DNA of 64,000 nt from Geodermatophilus obscurus. Its GTDB lineage: Bacteria; Actinomycetota; Actinomycetes; Mycobacteriales; Geodermatophilaceae. The DNA lies in the NCBI RefSeq assembly GCF_900143215.1, contig NZ_FRDM01000012.1, positions 1-64,000 of the forward strand, in the 5' to 3' direction. Shown in pieces: positions 23,475 to 47,779 of this stretch; position 1 is the first letter of the stretch, and every line of letters starts with the position of its first letter. Below the pieces are notes generated by a model. That model saw only the letters and a program-made list of their open reading frames with translations, had not been told where the DNA came from and made no database searches. The translations under genes and the position numbers were made by a program.

Positions 23475-23587
23475 GGCGGATCTCCTCCGGTCGGGACCCG
23501 GTGCGGTCGCACCGGCGCGGTTGTCGTGGGTCGTTCGGGGACGGGTGGCCCCGAGCCTGCGAGGCGTGGGGAGGACGGGGTCCTTGC

Positions 23588-24982
23588 TCAGACGAGGCTC
23601 TGGGCCTCGGTCAGCGTGTGCCGCAGGATCTGCTCGATCTCGTCGAACTCCGGCTGACCGCAGATCAACGGCGGAGCGACCTGGACGACGACGTCGCCAC
23701 GGTCGTCCGGGCGGCAGTACAGGCCGTTGTCGAACAGCGCGCCGGGCAGGAAGCCGCGGACCAGCCGCTCCCGCTCGGCGGCGTCGAAGGTCTCCCGGGT
23801 GACCTTGTCCTTGACCAGCTCGACGGCCCAGAAGTAGCCGTCGCCACGGACGTCGCCGACGATGGGCAGGTCCAGCAGCTTGCGCAGGGTGGCACCCAGC
23901 GCGGCCTCGTTGTCCAGCACGCGCTGGTTGAGCCCCTCGCTCTCCATGAGGTCCAGGTTGGCCAGCGAGACGGCTGCCGCCACCGGGTGGCCGCCGAAGG
24001 TGTAGCCGTGCGGGAACGCGACCCCCGGGCGCAGGAACGGCTCGACGACCTTCTCCGACGCGATCATCGCGCCGATCGGGCCGTAGCCGGAGCTCATGCC
24101 CTTGGCGCAGGTGATCAGGTCGGGGGTGTAGCCGAACTTCTCGCAGGCGAAGGTCGCGCCGTGCCGGCCGAAGGCGCAGATGACCTCGTCGGACACGAGC
24201 AGCACGTCGTGCCGGTCGCAGATCTCGCGCACCCGGTCGAAGTAGCCCGGGGGCGGCACGAGGCAGCCGCCGGAGTTCTGCACCGGCTCGAGGAACACCG
24301 CGGCCACGGTGTCGGCGCCCTCGAAGAGGATCGCCTCCTCGATCCGGTCGGCGGCCCAGCGGCCGAAGGCCTTCGGGTCGTCCGTGAACTCCGGGTGGCG
24401 GTAGAGGTTCGTGTTGGGCACCCGGAAGCCGCCCGGGGCGAGCGGCTCGAAGTCCTTCTTCATGGCGGGCAGCCCGGTGATGGCCAGGGCGCCGTGCGGG
24501 GTGCCGTGGTAGGCCACCGCACGGCTGATCACCTTGTGCTTCTGCGGCTTGCCGATCAGCTTGAAGTACTGCTTCGCGGCCTTCCACGCCGACTCCACCG
24601 CCTCTCCCCCGCCGGTGGTGAAGAAGACGCGGTTCAGGTCGCCGGGCGCGAGGTCGGCCACCCGCTCGGCCAGCTCGGCCTGCACCGGGGTGGTGTAGCC
24701 CCACACCGGGAAGTAGGCCAGCTCGGCAGCCTGCTTCCCGGCCGCCTCGGCCAGCTCTCGGCGGCCGTGCCCGACCTGGACGACGAAGAGCCCCGACAGG
24801 CCGTCGAGGATCTTCCGGCCTCGGTTGTCCCAGATGTAGGCACCCTCCCCGCGGGTGACGACCGGGATCGGCGTCTCCGGATGGCGGCCCTGGCGGGCGA
24901 AGTGCATCCAGAGGTGGTCCGCGGCGCGGGCCGCCGTCGCGTCCGGCACGCCGGCCGGAGGCTGCTCGATCGAGGTGGTCAT
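23588..24982 (-). CDS. Class III (omega) aminotransferase, probably pyruvate-dependent
   Basis: A protein of 464 aa from ATG 24982 with GAGGAGCC upstream. Class III PLP-enzyme features in order: FTTGGGEAVESAWKAAKQYF (phosphate-binding start), SRAVAYHGTPHGALAITG, LVSDEVICAFGRHG with the PLP-contacting Asp, and ITCAKGMSSGYGPIGA with the Schiff-base Lys. It transfers an amino group from an omega-amino acid or diamine to a keto acid. The alanine dehydrogenase next to it argues for pyruvate as acceptor. Candidate donors are GABA, beta-alanine, putrescine or taurine; these cannot be separated from sequence alone. It is probably the first gene of the catabolic unit. Confidence 0.85.
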   Translation of the reverse strand: MTTSIEQPPAGVPDATAARAADHLWMHFARQGRHPETPIPVVTRGEGAYIWDNRGRKILDGLSGLFVVQVGHGRRELAEAAGKQAAELAYFPVWGYTTPVQAELAERVADLAPGDLNRVFFTTGGGEAVESAWKAAKQYFKLIGKPQKHKVISRAVAYHGTPHGALAITGLPAMKKDFEPLAPGGFRVPNTNLYRHPEFTDDPKAFGRWAADRIEEAILFEGADTVAAVFLEPVQNSGGCLVPPPGYFDRVREICDRHDVLLVSDEVICAFGRHGATFACEKFGYTPDLITCAKGMSSGYGPIGAMIASEKVVEPFLRPGVAFPHGYTFGGHPVAAAVSLANLDLMESEGLNQRVLDNEAALGATLRKLLDLPIVGDVRGDGYFWAVELVKDKVTRETFDAAERERLVRGFLPGALFDNGLYCRPDDRGDVVVQVAPPLICGQPEFDEIEQILRHTLTEAQSLV

Positions 24983-30448: not shown

Positions 30449-32233
30449 ATGACCACTCCCCTGCCCGGGCCGCCGGTGCTCGTCCTGGGCGCCGGCCCGG
30501 TCGGCCAGACCGCCGCCCTGCTGCTGGCCCGCTGGGGCTTGCCGGTCGTCGTCCTCGACGCGCGGCCCGCGCGCGACCCCATCGGCAGCAAGGCCATCTG
30601 CCAGCAGCGCGACGTCCTCGACGTCTGGGACTCCGTCGGCGTCGGTGCCGAGGTCGCCCGCCGCGGCGTCACCTGGACCACCGCGCGCACCTTCCACCGC
30701 GACGCCGAGCTGTTCAGCTTCACCTTCGCCGACCGCGGCCGCTCCCCCTTCCCGCCGTTCGTCAACGTCTCGCAGTGCGAGACCGAGGCGCTGCTCGACG
30801 CGCGGATCGCCGCCTCGCCGCTGGTCGACGTGCGCTGGGGGCACCGGGTCACCGGGATCGACCAGGACGACTCCGCGGCCGGGGACGGTGGCGTCACCGT
30901 CACCTGCGAGACCCCGGGCGGCGAGGTGCGGGTGCGCGGCTCGCACGCCGTGGCCTGCCCCGGCCCCCGCAGCGACGCGCTCCGGTCGATGCTCGGGCTC
31001 GCCTTCCCCGGCGAGTCGTTCGAGGACTCCTTCCTCATCTGCGACATCCGCACGGACCTGCCCGGCTGGGAGACCGAGCGGCGCTTCTACTTCGACCCGG
31101 AGTGGAACCCCGGCCGGCAGGTGCTCATCCACCCCTGCCCGGACTCGACCTTCCGCATCGACTGGCAGGTGCCGCCGGACTTCGACCTCGCCACCGAGGA
31201 GGCCGCAGGCTCGCTGGACCGGCGGATCCGCCAGGTGATCGGCGACCGCCCCTACGAGATCGTGTGGAAGTCGGTCTACCGCTTCCACTCCCGGCTGGTG
31301 GACCGGATGCGGGTCGGGAAGGTCCTGGTCGCCGGCGACGCGGCGCACCTGGTCAGCCCGTTCGGCGCCCGCGGCCTGAACTCCGGCGTCCTGGACGCCG
31401 AGAACGCCGCCTGGAAGATCGCCTTCGTCCGCCGTGGCTGGGCACCCGAGGAGCTGCTGGAGAGCTACCACGCCGAACGGCACGCCGCGGCGCAGGAGAA
31501 CATCGACGTCACCACCGCGACCATGCGCTTCCTCGTGCCGCGCAGCGAGGAGGAGGCGCGCCACCGGCTCGACGTCCTCGAGCGGGCGGCCGGCGACCCC
31601 GCCGCCCGGGCCCAGGTCGACTCCGGCCGGCTGGCCGAGCCGTTCTGGTACGTCGACTCACCGCTGACCACTCCTGACCCGGCGCGCCCGTTCCCGGGCC
31701 GCCCGGCGCGCGGCGACGTCCCGGTGCCCGCCCCCGGCGTGCTGGTGCCGGACTGCCCGGTGACCGTGCCTGGTCGGCCCGACGTCGTCCGGCTGCGCCA
31801 GCTCGCCCGCGAGGGCGTCACCGTCCTCGTCGGCGACGATGCCGTCCTGCCGGCCCTCCCGGACCTCCCCGACGGCCTCCCTGCAGCGGCCCGCCACGAG
31901 CTCGCGAGTGGCGGGGGGCAGGGAGGTCCTTCTCGGCCGGTGAACGTGCACCGGATGGGCGACCTGGACCCCAGCGGCCTGCTCCACGAGGCCCTGGGCG
32001 CCCGTTCCGACGAGGTCTGGGTGCTGCGTCCCGACGCGCACATCGCCGCCGTGCTCACCGATCCCGCCGGGGTCGCCCCCGCGGTGGCCCGGCTGCTCGC
32101 CCTCGAAGGACCCCCGTGCCCCCCACCGCTCGTAGGAGGACCCCGTCCTCCTCACCGCTCGCAAGCTCGCGGCGAGCCTCTGGACGGGGCCGGAGCCCCT
32201 GCACGGGGGCCGGTCTCGGTGTCCACGATCTGA
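30449..32233 (+). CDS. FAD-dependent aromatic monooxygenase carrying two palindromic inserts
   Basis: A protein of 594 aa of the PHBH/MhpA class of flavin monooxygenases. FAD motifs: VLVLGAGPVGQTAALLLARW at residues ~10-29, and KVLVAGDAAHLVSPFGARGL with the GD motif; the DG-type motif is less clear. It should hydroxylate a phenolic acid using NAD(P)H and O2. Since HmgA follows, a hydroxyphenylacetate giving homogentisate is the likely substrate. Two features look foreign: a segment LPAAARHELASGGGQG near residues 477-492, and a Pro/Arg-rich tail of ~35 residues. Both coincide with copies of the same 49-bp palindromic repeat, suggesting that the element entered the gene without destroying it. 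Confidence 0.8.
   Translation: MTTPLPGPPVLVLGAGPVGQTAALLLARWGLPVVVLDARPARDPIGSKAICQQRDVLDVWDSVGVGAEVARRGVTWTTARTFHRDAELFSFTFADRGRSPFPPFVNVSQCETEALLDARIAASPLVDVRWGHRVTGIDQDDSAAGDGGVTVTCETPGGEVRVRGSHAVACPGPRSDALRSMLGLAFPGESFEDSFLICDIRTDLPGWETERRFYFDPEWNPGRQVLIHPCPDSTFRIDWQVPPDFDLATEEAAGSLDRRIRQVIGDRPYEIVWKSVYRFHSRLVDRMRVGKVLVAGDAAHLVSPFGARGLNSGVLDAENAAWKIAFVRRGWAPEELLESYHAERHAAAQENIDVTTATMRFLVPRSEEEARHRLDVLERAAGDPAARAQVDSGRLAEPFWYVDSPLTTPDPARPFPGRPARGDVPVPAPGVLVPDCPVTVPGRPDVVRLRQLAREGVTVLVGDDAVLPALPDLPDGLPAAARHELASGGGQGGPSRPVNVHRMGDLDPSGLLHEALGARSDEVWVLRPDAHIAAVLTDPAGVAPAVARLLALEGPPCPPPLVGGPRPPHRSQARGEPLDGAGAPARGPVSVSTI
31877..31925 (-). repeat. Palindromic element, copy C (inside the monooxygenase gene)
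   Basis: A 49-bp element whose arms CTCCCTGC and GCAGGGAG are perfectly complementary. Read on the minus strand it aligns without gaps to the element at 32141-32189, sharing the core TCGC(A/G)AGCTCG(C/T)GGCG. It is nested in a larger palindrome, GGACCTCCC at 31861 with GGGAGGTCC at 31921. It adds an Ala/Gly-rich segment to the encoded monooxygenase. Confidence 0.65.
32141..32189 (+). repeat. Palindromic element, copy A (3' end of the monooxygenase gene)
   Basis: A 49-bp element with arms CCCCGTCC and GGACGGGG and inner core ACCGCTCGCAAGCTCGCGGC followed by GAGCC. It supplies most of the codons of the unusual C-terminal tail of the monooxygenase. It has the same orientation as the copy between paaB and paaC. 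Confidence 0.7.
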
Positions 32234-32249
32234 AGGAGAGGGATCCCTG

Positions 32250-33455
32250 ATGGCGTTCTACCGACAGGTGGGCGAGGTCCCACCCAAGCGGCACACCCAG
32301 TTCCGCCGGCCCGACGGCGGCCTGTACTACGAGGAGCTGGTCGGCGAGGAGGGGTTCTCGTCGGACTCCGCGCTGCTGTACCACCGCGGCGTCCCGTCGG
32401 CGATCGTCGATGCCCGCCCGTGGGAGCTGCCCGACCAGACCCTCACGCCGAACGCACCGCTGGTCCCCCGGCACCTGAAGCTGCACGACCTCTTCCCCGG
32501 TGAGGAGCACAAGGCCACTGACGCGGTGACCGGCCGGCGCCTGGTGCTGGGCAACGGCGACGTGCGCATCTCCTACGCCGTCTCGTCACTGCCGAGCCCC
32601 TACTACCGCAACGCCACCGGCGACGAGTGCGTCTACGTCGAGCGGGGCTCGGCCGCGGTGGAGACCGTCTTCGGCGCGCTCGAGGTCGGGCAGGGCGACT
32701 ACGTGATCATCCCGCGCACCACCACCCACCGGTGGGTGCCGACCGGCAGTGAGCCGCTGCGCACGTACGCGATCGAGGCCAACAGCCACATCGCCCCGCC
32801 CAAGCGCTACCTGTCGAGGTACGGGCAGTTCCTCGAGCACGCCCCGTACTGCGAGCGCGACCTGCGCGGGCCGGCCGAGCCGCTGCTCGCCGAGGGCACC
32901 GACGTCGAGGTCTACGTCAAGCACCGCGGCAGCGGCCCGGGCGGGCTGGCCGGCACCGTGCACGTGCTCCCCGAGCACCCGTTCGACGTCGTCGGCTGGG
33001 ACGGGCACCTCTACCCGTACGCGTTCAACATCGCCGACTACGAGCCGATCACCGGACGGGTGCACCAGCCCCCGCCGGTGCACCAGGTGTTCGAGGGCGC
33101 CAACTTCGTGATCTGCAACTTCGTGCCGCGGAAGGTCGACTACCACCCGCTCGCGGTGCCGGTCCCCTACTACCACTCCAACGTCGACAGCGACGAGATC
33201 ATGTTCTACGTCGACGGCGACTACGAGGCCCGCAAGGGCTCCGGCATCGGCAAGGGCTCGATCTCCGTGCACCCCGGCGGGCACAGCCACGGCCCGCAGC
33301 CCGGCGCGGTGGAGCGCTCGCTGGGCGCGGAGTACTTCGACGAGCTCGCCGTCATGGTCGACACGTTCCGCCCGCTGGACCTCGGCGAGGCCGGCACCGC
33401 CGTCGACGACGGGAAGTACGCCTGGACCTGGTCCGGCCGGGGTCCCTCGGCATGA
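32250..33455 (+). CDS. hmgA: Homogentisate 1,2-dioxygenase
   Basis: A protein of 401 aa with GGAGAGGGATCCC before ATG 32250. Cupin-type iron dioxygenase. The metal ligands are visible in PYYHSNVDSDEIMFYVDG (H309 and E316) and in HPGGHSHGPQPG, where a further His follows ~30 residues later. Other family blocks: GDYVIIPRTTTHRWVPTG, VVGWDGHLYPYAFNI and HQVFEGANFVICNFVPR. It opens the ring of homogentisate with O2 to give maleylacetoacetate. The length is a little shorter than the proteobacterial/human enzyme (~430-445 aa), as is usual for actinobacterial forms. It is 16 bases after the monooxygenase and overlaps the next gene by ATGA. Confidence 0.93.
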   Translation: MAFYRQVGEVPPKRHTQFRRPDGGLYYEELVGEEGFSSDSALLYHRGVPSAIVDARPWELPDQTLTPNAPLVPRHLKLHDLFPGEEHKATDAVTGRRLVLGNGDVRISYAVSSLPSPYYRNATGDECVYVERGSAAVETVFGALEVGQGDYVIIPRTTTHRWVPTGSEPLRTYAIEANSHIAPPKRYLSRYGQFLEHAPYCERDLRGPAEPLLAEGTDVEVYVKHRGSGPGGLAGTVHVLPEHPFDVVGWDGHLYPYAFNIADYEPITGRVHQPPPVHQVFEGANFVICNFVPRKVDYHPLAVPVPYYHSNVDSDEIMFYVDGDYEARKGSGIGKGSISVHPGGHSHGPQPGAVERSLGAEYFDELAVMVDTFRPLDLGEAGTAVDDGKYAWTWSGRGPSA

Positions 33456-34330
33456 CGACCTCGTCCGCTCCCAGCACCGGCGCGCACGCCGCGCCGGTGC
33501 TGGTCACCGGCCTGTTCGACGACGCCGCCCTGTTCCCGCCCGGGAACGCGCCGATGGCCGCCGCCGTCCCCGCGCACCGCCGGCTGCGGGCACGGCTCGG
33601 CGATCTCGTCGGGCCGTTCGTCGTGCCGGCGGCCCGGCTCGGCGAGCTCGCCGAGCACCTGGGGGACGGCGAGCCGCTCGGTGTCTCGCTCATCGCGGCA
33701 GCCGGCGACCTGCCGGCCGCCGCGGCCCGGGTCACCGCCTGCCCGGGGCTGACCCTGGCCGCCGTCGAGGTCCCGGTCGCCACCGACGCCGCGGCGGCCC
33801 GCGAGGCGGTCCGGGTCCTCGACGACGTCCTGCCCGCCGACGTGCCGGCGGCGGTCGAGGTGCCGCGCACGGCCGCCCGGGACGGGGTCCTCGACGTCCT
33901 GGCCGGCACCCGGTACCGCGCCAAGCTGCGCACCGGCGGGGTGCGCGCCGCACTGTTCCCGAGCCCGGTCGAGCTGGCCGACACCCTGCACGCCTGCCTC
34001 ACGCGCGGCATCGCGGTCAAGTGCACCGCCGGCCTGCACTCCGCGGTCCGGCACACCGATCCGGGAACCGGCTTCGAGCACCACGGTTTCCTCAACGTGC
34101 TGCTCGCGGCCTCGGCGCTGGTTTCCGGTGCCCCGCCGGCGGTCGCCGCGCAGTGGCTGGCCGGGACCGACCCGGGCACCGTGGCTTCCGCCGTGCGCGC
34201 CTGGCCGGTCGACCGCGCCGCCCGGGCCCGCGCCGCCTTCACCTCCTTCGGTACCTGCAGCGTGCTCGAGCCGGTCGACGACCTCGTCACCCTCGGCCTG
34301 CTGCCCTCCCCGGAACGGAGCCCCGCGTGA
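33452..34330 (+). CDS. Conserved hypothetical protein between hmgA and fahA
   Basis: A protein of 292 aa overlapping hmgA (ATGA) and fahA (GTGA), so strictly co-translated. Notable blocks: GLFDDAALFPPGNAPM near the N-terminus; RAKLRTGGVRAALFPSP; and RGIAVKCTAGLHSAVRHTDP followed by GFEHHGFLNVLLAAS. The regular alternation of short strands and helices, with conserved K/R at strand ends, is reminiscent of a TIM barrel with a phosphate or carboxylate site (KLRTGG, KCTAGLH). No known family assigned. No maleylacetoacetate isomerase is seen in the operon, so this product could fill that step or act on a side product; this is inference from position only. Confidence 0.7.
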   Translation: MTTSSAPSTGAHAAPVLVTGLFDDAALFPPGNAPMAAAVPAHRRLRARLGDLVGPFVVPAARLGELAEHLGDGEPLGVSLIAAAGDLPAAAARVTACPGLTLAAVEVPVATDAAAAREAVRVLDDVLPADVPAAVEVPRTAARDGVLDVLAGTRYRAKLRTGGVRAALFPSPVELADTLHACLTRGIAVKCTAGLHSAVRHTDPGTGFEHHGFLNVLLAASALVSGAPPAVAAQWLAGTDPGTVASAVRAWPVDRAARARAAFTSFGTCSVLEPVDDLVTLGLLPSPERSPA

Positions 34331-35529
34331 CCTCCACCTGGCTGGACCTCCCCGCCGGCACCGGCTTCGGGCCGGACAACCTGCCCTACGGCGTCTTCTC
34401 GACCGAGCTCGACGGCCCCCGGCGGGTCGGCGTCGCCATCGGTGGGCACGTCCTCGACGTCTCGCGGCTGGACGTCCCGGCGGCCGACGCGCTGGCCACC
34501 GGCTCGCTCAACGCGCTGATGTCGCGTGGGCGGAGGACGTGGGACGCCCTGCGCGCCCGGCTGCAGGAGCTGCTCGCCGACCCGGCGCACCGCGGTGCCG
34601 TCGAGCCGCACCTGCTGCCGAGCGAGGCCGTGACGCTGCACCTGCCGGTCGAGGTCGCCGACTACGTCGACTTCTACAGCTCCCAGCACCACGCCGAGAA
34701 CCTCGGCCGCATGTTCCGCCCCGACTCCGAGCCGCTGACCCCGAACTGGAAGCACCTGCCGATCGGCTACCACGGTCGTGCCGGCACGGTGGCCGTCTCC
34801 GGCACCCCGGTCGTGCGGCCGAACGGGCAGCGGAAGGCGCCGACGGACGACGCGCCCACGTTCGGTCCGTCGCAGCGGCTGGACATCGAGGCCGAGGTCG
34901 GCTTCGTCGTCGGCACGCCGTCCCGGCTCGGCACCCCGGTCCCCGTGACCGACTTCGCCGACCACGTCTTCGGCGTGTGCCTGGTCAACGACTGGTCCGC
35001 CCGGGACATCCAGTCCTGGGAGTACGTGCCGCTGGGCCCCTTCCTCGGCAAGTCCTTCCTCACCTCGATCTCGCCGTGGGTGGTCCCCCTGGCCGCGCTG
35101 GAGGCCGCCCGGGTCGCACCGGAGCGCGACGTGCCGCTGCTGCCCTACCTCGACGACACCGGCCAGCCGTGGGGACTCGACCTCGCCCTCGAGGTGCGAC
35201 TCAACGGTGACCTGGTCAGCTGCCCGCCGTTCGGCCTCATGTACTGGACGCCGGCCCAGCAGCTGGCGCACATGACCGTCAACGGCGCCAGCCTGCGCAC
35301 CGGCGACCTGTTCGCCTCCGGCACCGTCTCCGGCCCGGGCGAGGAGCAGCGCGGCTCGTTCATCGAGCTCTCCTGGGGCGGCAGGGAGCCGCTGACGCTG
35401 TCCGACGGGTCGACGCGCACGTTCCTCGAGGACGGCGACGAGGTCACCCTCACCGCGACCGCGCCCGGCCCGGACGGCGGCCGGATCGCCCTCGGCGAGG
35501 TGACCGGGCGGGTGCAGCCGGCGCCGTGA
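34327..35529 (+). CDS. fahA: Fumarylacetoacetase
   Basis: A protein of 400 aa from the GTG overlapping the previous stop. The FAH domains are clear: an N-terminal SH3-like part (FGPDNLPYGVFSTELDGPRR), then YVDFYSSQHHAENLGRMFRP with the catalytic His, LPIGYHGRAGTVAVSGTPV, RLDIEAEVGFVVGTPS with metal-binding Glu residues, and VFGVCLVNDWSARDIQSWEY supplying Asp and Arg of the active site. GKSFLTSISPWVVPLAAL completes the signature. It hydrolyses fumarylacetoacetate to fumarate and acetoacetate, the last step of the homogentisate pathway. It accepts the fumaryl isomer only, so an isomerase is needed upstream. Confidence 0.93.
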   Translation: MTSTWLDLPAGTGFGPDNLPYGVFSTELDGPRRVGVAIGGHVLDVSRLDVPAADALATGSLNALMSRGRRTWDALRARLQELLADPAHRGAVEPHLLPSEAVTLHLPVEVADYVDFYSSQHHAENLGRMFRPDSEPLTPNWKHLPIGYHGRAGTVAVSGTPVVRPNGQRKAPTDDAPTFGPSQRLDIEAEVGFVVGTPSRLGTPVPVTDFADHVFGVCLVNDWSARDIQSWEYVPLGPFLGKSFLTSISPWVVPLAALEAARVAPERDVPLLPYLDDTGQPWGLDLALEVRLNGDLVSCPPFGLMYWTPAQQLAHMTVNGASLRTGDLFASGTVSGPGEEQRGSFIELSWGGREPLTLSDGSTRTFLEDGDEVTLTATAPGPDGGRIALGEVTGRVQPAP

Positions 35530-47657: not shown

Positions 47658-47661
47658 CGGA

Positions 47662-47711
47662 CCTGCCTCCTCCCCGCCGCTCGGTCCTCGCGGCGAGCCC
47701 CTGGAGGCAGG
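47662..47711 (+). repeat. Palindromic element, copy B (between paaB and paaC)
   Basis: A 50-bp element: arms CCTGCCTCC and GGAGGCAGG (9 bp, perfect) and inner CCGCTCG...CTCGCGGCGAGCC core, matching the copies in the monooxygenase gene. It begins 4 bases after the paaB stop and fills part of the 122-bp gap, the only large gap in the paaABCDE operon. As RNA it would fold into a stable hairpin that might modulate mRNA stability. Confidence 0.7.
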
Positions 47712-47779
47712 CCATCTCCAGTGGGGCCCTGAGAGGAGGGCCGCCGCTGGGCAAGCATCCAACGAGAGGTTCCGCTGGC

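What the first reader, a model, noticed from the sequence alone, without database searches (positions are those of the whole stretch)
31877..32189. Palindromic 49-bp elements inserted in frame inside a monooxygenase gene
Copy C (31877-31925, minus orientation) and copy A (32141-32189, plus) are the same length and align without gaps, with a shared core around TCGC(A/G)AGCTCG(C/T)GGCG. Their outer arms differ (CTCCCTGC/GCAGGGAG against CCCCGTCC/GGACGGGG), yet each pair is perfectly self-complementary, so the palindrome is kept while sequence changes. Both sit in the last fifth of the monooxygenase frame, adding an Ala/Gly-rich segment and a Pro/Arg-rich tail. A selfish palindrome that tolerates insertion into coding sequence is known from Rickettsia (RPE); an actinobacterial counterpart would be notable.
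Basis: partly seen in the sequence, partly recalled or inferred. Interest (0 to 1): 0.8.

Follow-up and report, generated by a model that had tools for sequence, protein, structure and literature searches.

The report
Mobile DNA hairpins docked behind stop codons
A short DNA hairpin, repeated hundreds of times in a soil bacterium of the Geodermatophilus group, mostly sits right behind the stop codon of a gene at a nearly fixed distance, and the two copies inside this gene are exceptions to that habit.

Summary
The two palindromes are real. They belong to an abundant, apparently undescribed repeat family of Geodermatophilaceae: a hairpin of mostly 54-56 nt, GG(A)CC, variable arm, inner stem, TCGCNNGCTC loop, and back to GGCC. 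Both stems covary. A strict core occurs 120 times in this genome (backward control 0) and in 98 of 112 family genomes; I estimate 350-550 copies here.

In an 864-kb sample 92 of 95 full copies are intergenic. Of 77 clusters, 49 have GGACC within 12 nt after a stop on the same strand, 32 of these exactly 4 nt on. Of 81 sites occupied in one species and empty in a relative (26 distinct loci), 57 follow a stop, and in 49 the empty relative has a stop at the same place. So copies arrive behind stops that were already there. They also nest in each other's loops; copy A is nested. Copy C, antisense and in frame, is an exception found in 2 of 37 informative orthologues.

REP transposase (0 of 108 genomes), integron integrase (0 of 8), reverse transcriptase and IS110 do not explain the spread. 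What moves it, and why stops are chosen, remain unknown.

The parts
30449..32233 (+). FAD-dependent monooxygenase frame (PRK08132-like) that holds both copies
31874..31929 (-). copy C, full hairpin, antisense and in frame in the gene; among the 37 informative orthologues only L034 and L038 have it
32138..32191 (+). copy A, full hairpin; preceded by an element-type TAG at 32133-32135 that is out of frame, so the frame reads through
   Evidence: frame counted by hand from the start at 30449
32105..32132 (+). 5' half of an older element (GAAGGACCCCCGTGCCCCCCACCGCTCG) interrupted by copy A
32196..32211 (+). 3' half of the same older element (CCCCTGCACGGGGGCC)
   Evidence: read from the sequence
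47659..47713 (+). third full copy of the window, at the TAG that ends a called gene
23549..23588 (-). partial copy (5' part)

Best explanation
The two palindromes are members of a non-autonomous, mobile DNA hairpin family of Geodermatophilaceae. New copies are mostly placed directly behind pre-existing stop codons, nearly always with the same end facing the stop, or into the loop of an older copy. Shown: dispersed high copy number, gain or loss between related species, docking behind stops at one dominant spacing, nesting, covarying stems. Inferred: an enzyme acting in trans, not identified here, recognises one folded strand (perhaps the one antisense to the upstream gene) and inserts the element. 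Copies inside genes such as copy C, or copies at a gene end whose stop was lost such as copy A, are off-target events kept because they stay in frame in a tolerant linker or tail of the protein.
For: High copy. Intergenic 92 of 95; 3 copies in 38 kb of divergent gaps against 32 in 20 kb of convergent gaps. RRGGACC begins 0-10 nt after 57 of 778 stops, 39 of them at one single offset; the 60 positions before the stop hold 25 in all. Same offset in six relatives: 69 among 587 stops, 39 at that offset (partly orthologous copies). 49 of 77 clusters at a stop, 32 at exactly 4 nt. Not merely a TGA motif: GG[AC]CC lies exactly 4 nt after 54 of 700 TGA stops, against 15 places among 1767 non-stop TGA, one of the 15 a real element by eye; TAG stops are used as often as TGA (8 of 75, 49 of 700). 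Pre-existing stops: 49 of the 57 docked among 81 variable sites; these are 26 loci, of which 23 have a docked site and 22 one whose empty relative has the stop. Orientation: 37 of 85 hits have the 5' end near a same-strand stop, 4 the 3' end near an opposite-strand stop. Fresh nesting: G050 against three relatives with the intact outer element (case 71). Covariation: 11 of 19 pairs changed on both sides, score 0.313 against 0.079 shuffled. Bulged A in 134 of 140. Strand: A-C against G-T mismatches 80 to 13, or 33 to 12 without one conserved pair.
Against: No mobilising enzyme found; only four candidate families were tested. No target duplication was noticed, and the cleanest events replace about 11-12 bp of target, which is odd for transposition; one event (case 47) shows no loss but extra bases on the right. 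Selection for a function at the gene end could by itself enrich this position. 28 of 77 clusters lack a GGACC within 12 nt after a called stop: 9 have only GGCCC there, which could also be an inverted copy, and 19 neither. Only 12 of 26 variable loci are docked at every site. Arms alone show no strand bias (G-T 9, A-C 12), and the fold-energy bias between strands (137 of 140) is confounded by base composition. In named loci of the family docking at the exact offset was not seen (0 of 256 stops), though these loci hold 9 elements, all at this gene. Genes were called with a home-made caller.
Confidence: 0.65

Rival explanations
1. Functional 3'-end hairpins (termination or mRNA protection) that spread by occasional copying; their place behind the stop is set by selection, not by the insertion machinery.
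For: 3' location, few copies in divergent gaps, orientation relative to the upstream gene, covarying stems.
Against: One exact offset dominates (39 of 57) where a terminator should tolerate a spread; the 8 TAG stops mostly use other spacings than TGA stops; mismatches favour folding of the strand opposite to the mRNA; no T run seen after the hairpin (by eye); copies present in one species and absent in a close relative sit there too.
Confidence: 0.22
2. MITE of a known IS family of these genomes.
For: Nesting and patchy presence.
Against: IS110 and reverse transcriptase do not track the element (G050 is rich in it and lacks both); no target duplication noticed. Other IS families were not tested.
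Confidence: 0.15
3. Classical REP mobilised by a RAYT (Y1) transposase.
For: Size, copy number, hairpin with a bulge, 3' intergenic habit.
Against: PF01797 in 0 of 108 family genomes, with the control ringing in 5 of 14 reference genomes; no GTAG or CGTC tag at the foot.
Confidence: 0.04
4. Counterpart of the Rickettsia palindromic elements: a selfish palindrome adapted to insertion in coding sequence.
For: Copy C adds an in-frame segment of about 20 residues; L034 and L038 keep the frame with other lengths.
Against: 3 of 95 copies genic.
Confidence: 0.04

Closest known systems
REP elements and RAYT transposases (PMC3733652: start of abstract and two passages; PMC2817692, PMC3116915, PMC1525189: search listing only)
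   Same: Short, high-copy, extragenic hairpins, moved in trans by RAYTs (recalled); REPs are also targets of insertions (PMC1525189, listing)
   Different: No Y1 transposase found in the family, no GTAG/CGTC tag, docking behind stop codons at one main spacing, insertion into own loop
Rickettsia palindromic elements, RPE (PMC10969869, passages)
   Same: Palindromic; copy C is in frame in a gene
   Different: RPEs are described as about 150 bp with many copies in frame in genes; these hairpins are mostly 54-56 nt and nearly all outside genes
Mycobacterial interspersed repetitive units, MIRU (PMC12548453, one passage)
   Same: Short mobile repeats of Actinobacteria placed at translation signals
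   Different: MIRUs are described as inserting at start codons with a coupled ORF; these are palindromes behind stops
Pneumococcal BOX, RUP, SPRITE (PMC10969869, passages)
   Same: Elements insert into one another; SPRITE is terminator-like
   Different: Different hosts; no stop-codon docking mentioned in the passages seen

Membership tests
REP/RAYT | many short extragenic palindromes | tested here: met
REP/RAYT | GTAG or CGTC tag at the hairpin foot | tested here: not met
   foot is mostly NNRR before GGACC
REP/RAYT | RAYT (Y1_Tnp) in the genome | tested here: not met
   own genome 0; 0 of 108 family genomes
RPE | many copies in frame inside genes | tested here: not met
   3 of 95 genic
MITE | target-site duplication | tested here: inconclusive
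   none noticed in the cleanest events, which replace 11-12 bp; no systematic test
MITE | parent IS with matching ends | not tested
   only the presence of IS110 was scanned
MIRU | insertion at start codons with a coupled ORF | tested here: not met
   copies mostly follow stops; an ORF in the element was not looked for
integron attC site | integron integrase in the genome | tested here: not met
   0 of 8 genomes over cut-off
intrinsic terminator | hairpin followed by a T run | tested here: not met
   3' flanks are G+C-rich, read by eye; no terminator scan was run
known Rfam RNA family | covariance-model match | tested here: not met
   0 matches at E<=1 in window 31500-32600

The most novel reading that the evidence does not exclude
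A mobile DNA hairpin whose insertion is aimed at translation stop codons: an unknown machine reads one folded DNA strand and places the copy exactly after the stop, so that it settles at the ends of genes without harming them. This would be a stop-codon-addressed element moved by an enzyme class not yet tied to palindromic repeats.
Probability: 0.35. Interest if true: 0.87.

Novelty: new variant of a known kind. Interest (0 to 1): 0.72.

Why it matters
Small palindromic repeats are common in bacteria, but how they come to lie in harmless places is not well understood (my judgement). Here the place is fixed nearly to the nucleotide relative to stop codons, in several species of one genus, in a family where no REP transposase was found. 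That makes two questions testable: what moves such repeats without a RAYT, and whether insertion can be addressed to stop codons. It also warns annotators that some C-terminal tails and linkers in Geodermatophilaceae proteins are repeat-derived.

Tried and rejected
RAYT, integron integrase, IS110 and reverse transcriptase as mobiliser: not found or not tracking the element. A bare TGA trinucleotide as the target: not supported. The idea that the element brings the stop: fits a minority, e.g. cases 77, 84, 91, 92 and 97, where a TAG or TAA 2 nt before the hairpin faces a sense codon in the empty relative. Sense-mRNA hairpin as the selected form: not favoured by the mismatches. One shared origin of copy C: the gene tree does not group the three carriers; the window gene pairs with G. 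siccatus (support 90/84), which lacks it. Independent insertion, loss and recombination cannot be told apart.

Counts mended on rereading: accepted GGACC or GGCCC and gave 58 of 77 clusters and 65 of 81 sites; GGCCC can also begin an inverted copy, so recounted with GGACC alone (49 of 77, 57 of 81; for the sites a hit on that strand was also required), and merged orthologous sites into 26 loci.

Literature: the listings show no paper that I recognise as being on this repeat; most subscription papers are not held. (MIRU) led to PMC12548453. PMC9686282 (Geodermatophilaceae genomes) was searched for three words only: CRISPR counts, no such repeat. Whole-genome counts (40 candidates scored; 150 scored) are saturated. 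A first script failed on a syntax point.

Full report
What was checked. The sequence at 31877-31925 and 32141-32189 is as described: two gap-free similar palindromes with different but self-complementary outer arms, both inside the frame 30449-32233. That frame is a FAD-dependent monooxygenase (PF01494; NF006002 over residues 9-548 of 594), next to a homogentisate-dioxygenase-like gene and near a fumarylacetoacetase. The closest named orthologues are from Geodermatophilus.

It is a repeat family. blastn of copy A with short flanks finds 44 places in the own genome although only 40 of 336 candidates were scored. The strict core CCRCTCGCNNGCTCGNGG occurs 120 times, the backward control 0. In 864 kb (window plus 800 kb of contigs C48, C37, C36, C51) nhmmer gives 121 matches at E<=1, reversed control 0; a covariance model gives 90 at E<=0.01. 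My sample is enriched: by my count of the list it holds 30 of the 120 core hits in 16% of the genome. Scaling 90 by core hits gives about 360 copies, by length about 545. In the family, 98 of 112 genomes have the core; of the 14 without it, G001, G017 and G029 belong to genera whose other members mostly have it. Forty-five loci from outside the family gave no hit. Stretches of two other genera hold 12 hits in 400 kb, several right behind a stop by eye.

Anatomy. The hairpin is GG(A)CC, a variable outer arm, a C-rich stretch, an 8-bp inner stem, the loop TCGCNNGCTC, and the way back to GGCC. In 140 distinct copies 666 of 840 outer-arm cells pair, against 440 on average and at most 484 with arms exchanged. 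For 28 of the 31 copies of 56 nt, 92.3% of cells pair, 11 of 19 pairs change on both sides and the covariation score is 0.313 against 0.079 shuffled; slid structures reach at most 0.073. The four outermost pairs are fixed because I chose copies by GG-N-CC and GGCC. The bulged A is kept in 134 of 140. Where pairs fail by a single transition, A-C outnumbers G-T in the forward strand (48 to 8 and 32 to 5; without one conserved pair 21 to 7 and 12 to 5), so the opposite strand pairs better. In the arms alone there is no such bias. Some copies carry a 3' tail like GTTCCAGCACGTCACC and tandem 3' halves.

Where it sits. With a home-made gene caller (778 genes in the sample), 92 of 95 full copies are intergenic: 56 between co-directional genes (40 in gene orientation, 16 against it), 32 between convergent and 3 between divergent genes, 1 at an end. 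RRGGACC starts 2 nt after the stop at 39 of 778 stops, and 0-10 nt after it at 57. By clusters, 49 of 77 have GGACC within 12 nt after a same-strand stop, 32 of them at exactly 4 nt; 9 more have only GGCCC there and 19 neither (the looser count was 58). Some of the 19 lie behind a stop with a decayed GGACC, by eye. Facing the other way is rare: 4 of 85 hits have the 3' end near an opposite-strand stop, 37 the 5' end near a same-strand one. Non-stop TGA in the same kind of gap is hardly used (one real element by eye among 15 motif matches, 1767 TGA). Six relatives give the same offset (39 of 69 matches, 587 stops); some of these copies are orthologous to those of the own genome. Against generality: 256 stops in named loci of the family gave 2 matches within 0-10 nt and none at the exact offset, in loci that hold 9 elements, all at this gene.

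Movement. In eight genomes over the region syntenic to C37, density runs from 1.0 to 21 per 100 kb. There are 81 sites occupied in one genome and empty in another. Counted with GGACC and a hit on the same strand, 57 follow a coding-supported stop; in 49 of these the empty genome has a stop at exactly the aligned place, 43 the same codon (the looser count was 65, 55 and 49). The sites are not independent: they merge into 26 loci, of which 23 have a docked site, 22 a docked site whose empty relative has the stop, and 12 are docked at every site; 16 loci show more than one arm type. Nesting is directly seen: in G050 a second element sits in the loop of one that is intact in the own genome, G048 and G056, with 12 bp of loop replaced (case 71).

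The two copies of the finding. Copy A is nested in an older element at the gene's 3' end. Six of the aligned orthologues (L031, L033, L035, L036, L045, L064) also have an element there, and L038 has an element-in-element behind its stop. The TAG of copy A is out of frame, so the protein runs on into repeat-derived residues. Copy C lies antisense in a length-variable linker. Of 38 orthologues aligned (of 80 fetched) one, L054, is cut short; of the other 37, L034 and L038 have the segment and 35 do not. The three carriers do not form a clade.

What moves it. PF01797 has no match in any of 108 family genomes searched. Integron integrase over cut-off: 0 of 8. Reverse transcriptase occurs in 48 of 108 and IS110 in 70 of 108, without tracking the element, e.g. 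G050 has about 149 core hits and neither. Other transposase families were not tested.

Verdict. A real, abundant, apparently undescribed repeat. The striking part is not that it enters genes but that it mostly stays out of them by docking right behind stops. Whether the docking is built into the insertion or made by selection is open; I favour the former because copies that differ between close relatives already sit there.

Noticed in passing
L171 7274-7426 (C36 27274-27426), L173 2046-2229 (C36 62046-62229), and G004 C14 about 315499-315747: Tandem arrays of the 3' half of the element joined by a tail (GTTCCAGCACGTCACC or GCTCCAGCACCTCACC in the first and third), which resemble a minisatellite.
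   Followed up: partly
own C37 106171-106234 with the matching sites in G048 and G056: An element between a TAG stop and the next start codon, which lie 2 nt apart in the empty genomes G040 and G062; the occupied genomes have an extra stretch with a ribosome-binding-site-like AGGAGG before the start (cases 17, 46, 72).
   Followed up: no
L037, L047, L056 at the monooxygenase-hmgA gap: Other, unrelated palindromes sit in the same gap in relatives (e.g. CAGGGGCAGAAATGGCCATTTCTGCCCCT in L037).
   Followed up: no
window 30449-35529: Gene order monooxygenase, homogentisate-dioxygenase-like gene, an unidentified gene, fumarylacetoacetase suggests a homogentisate pathway cluster.
   Followed up: partly
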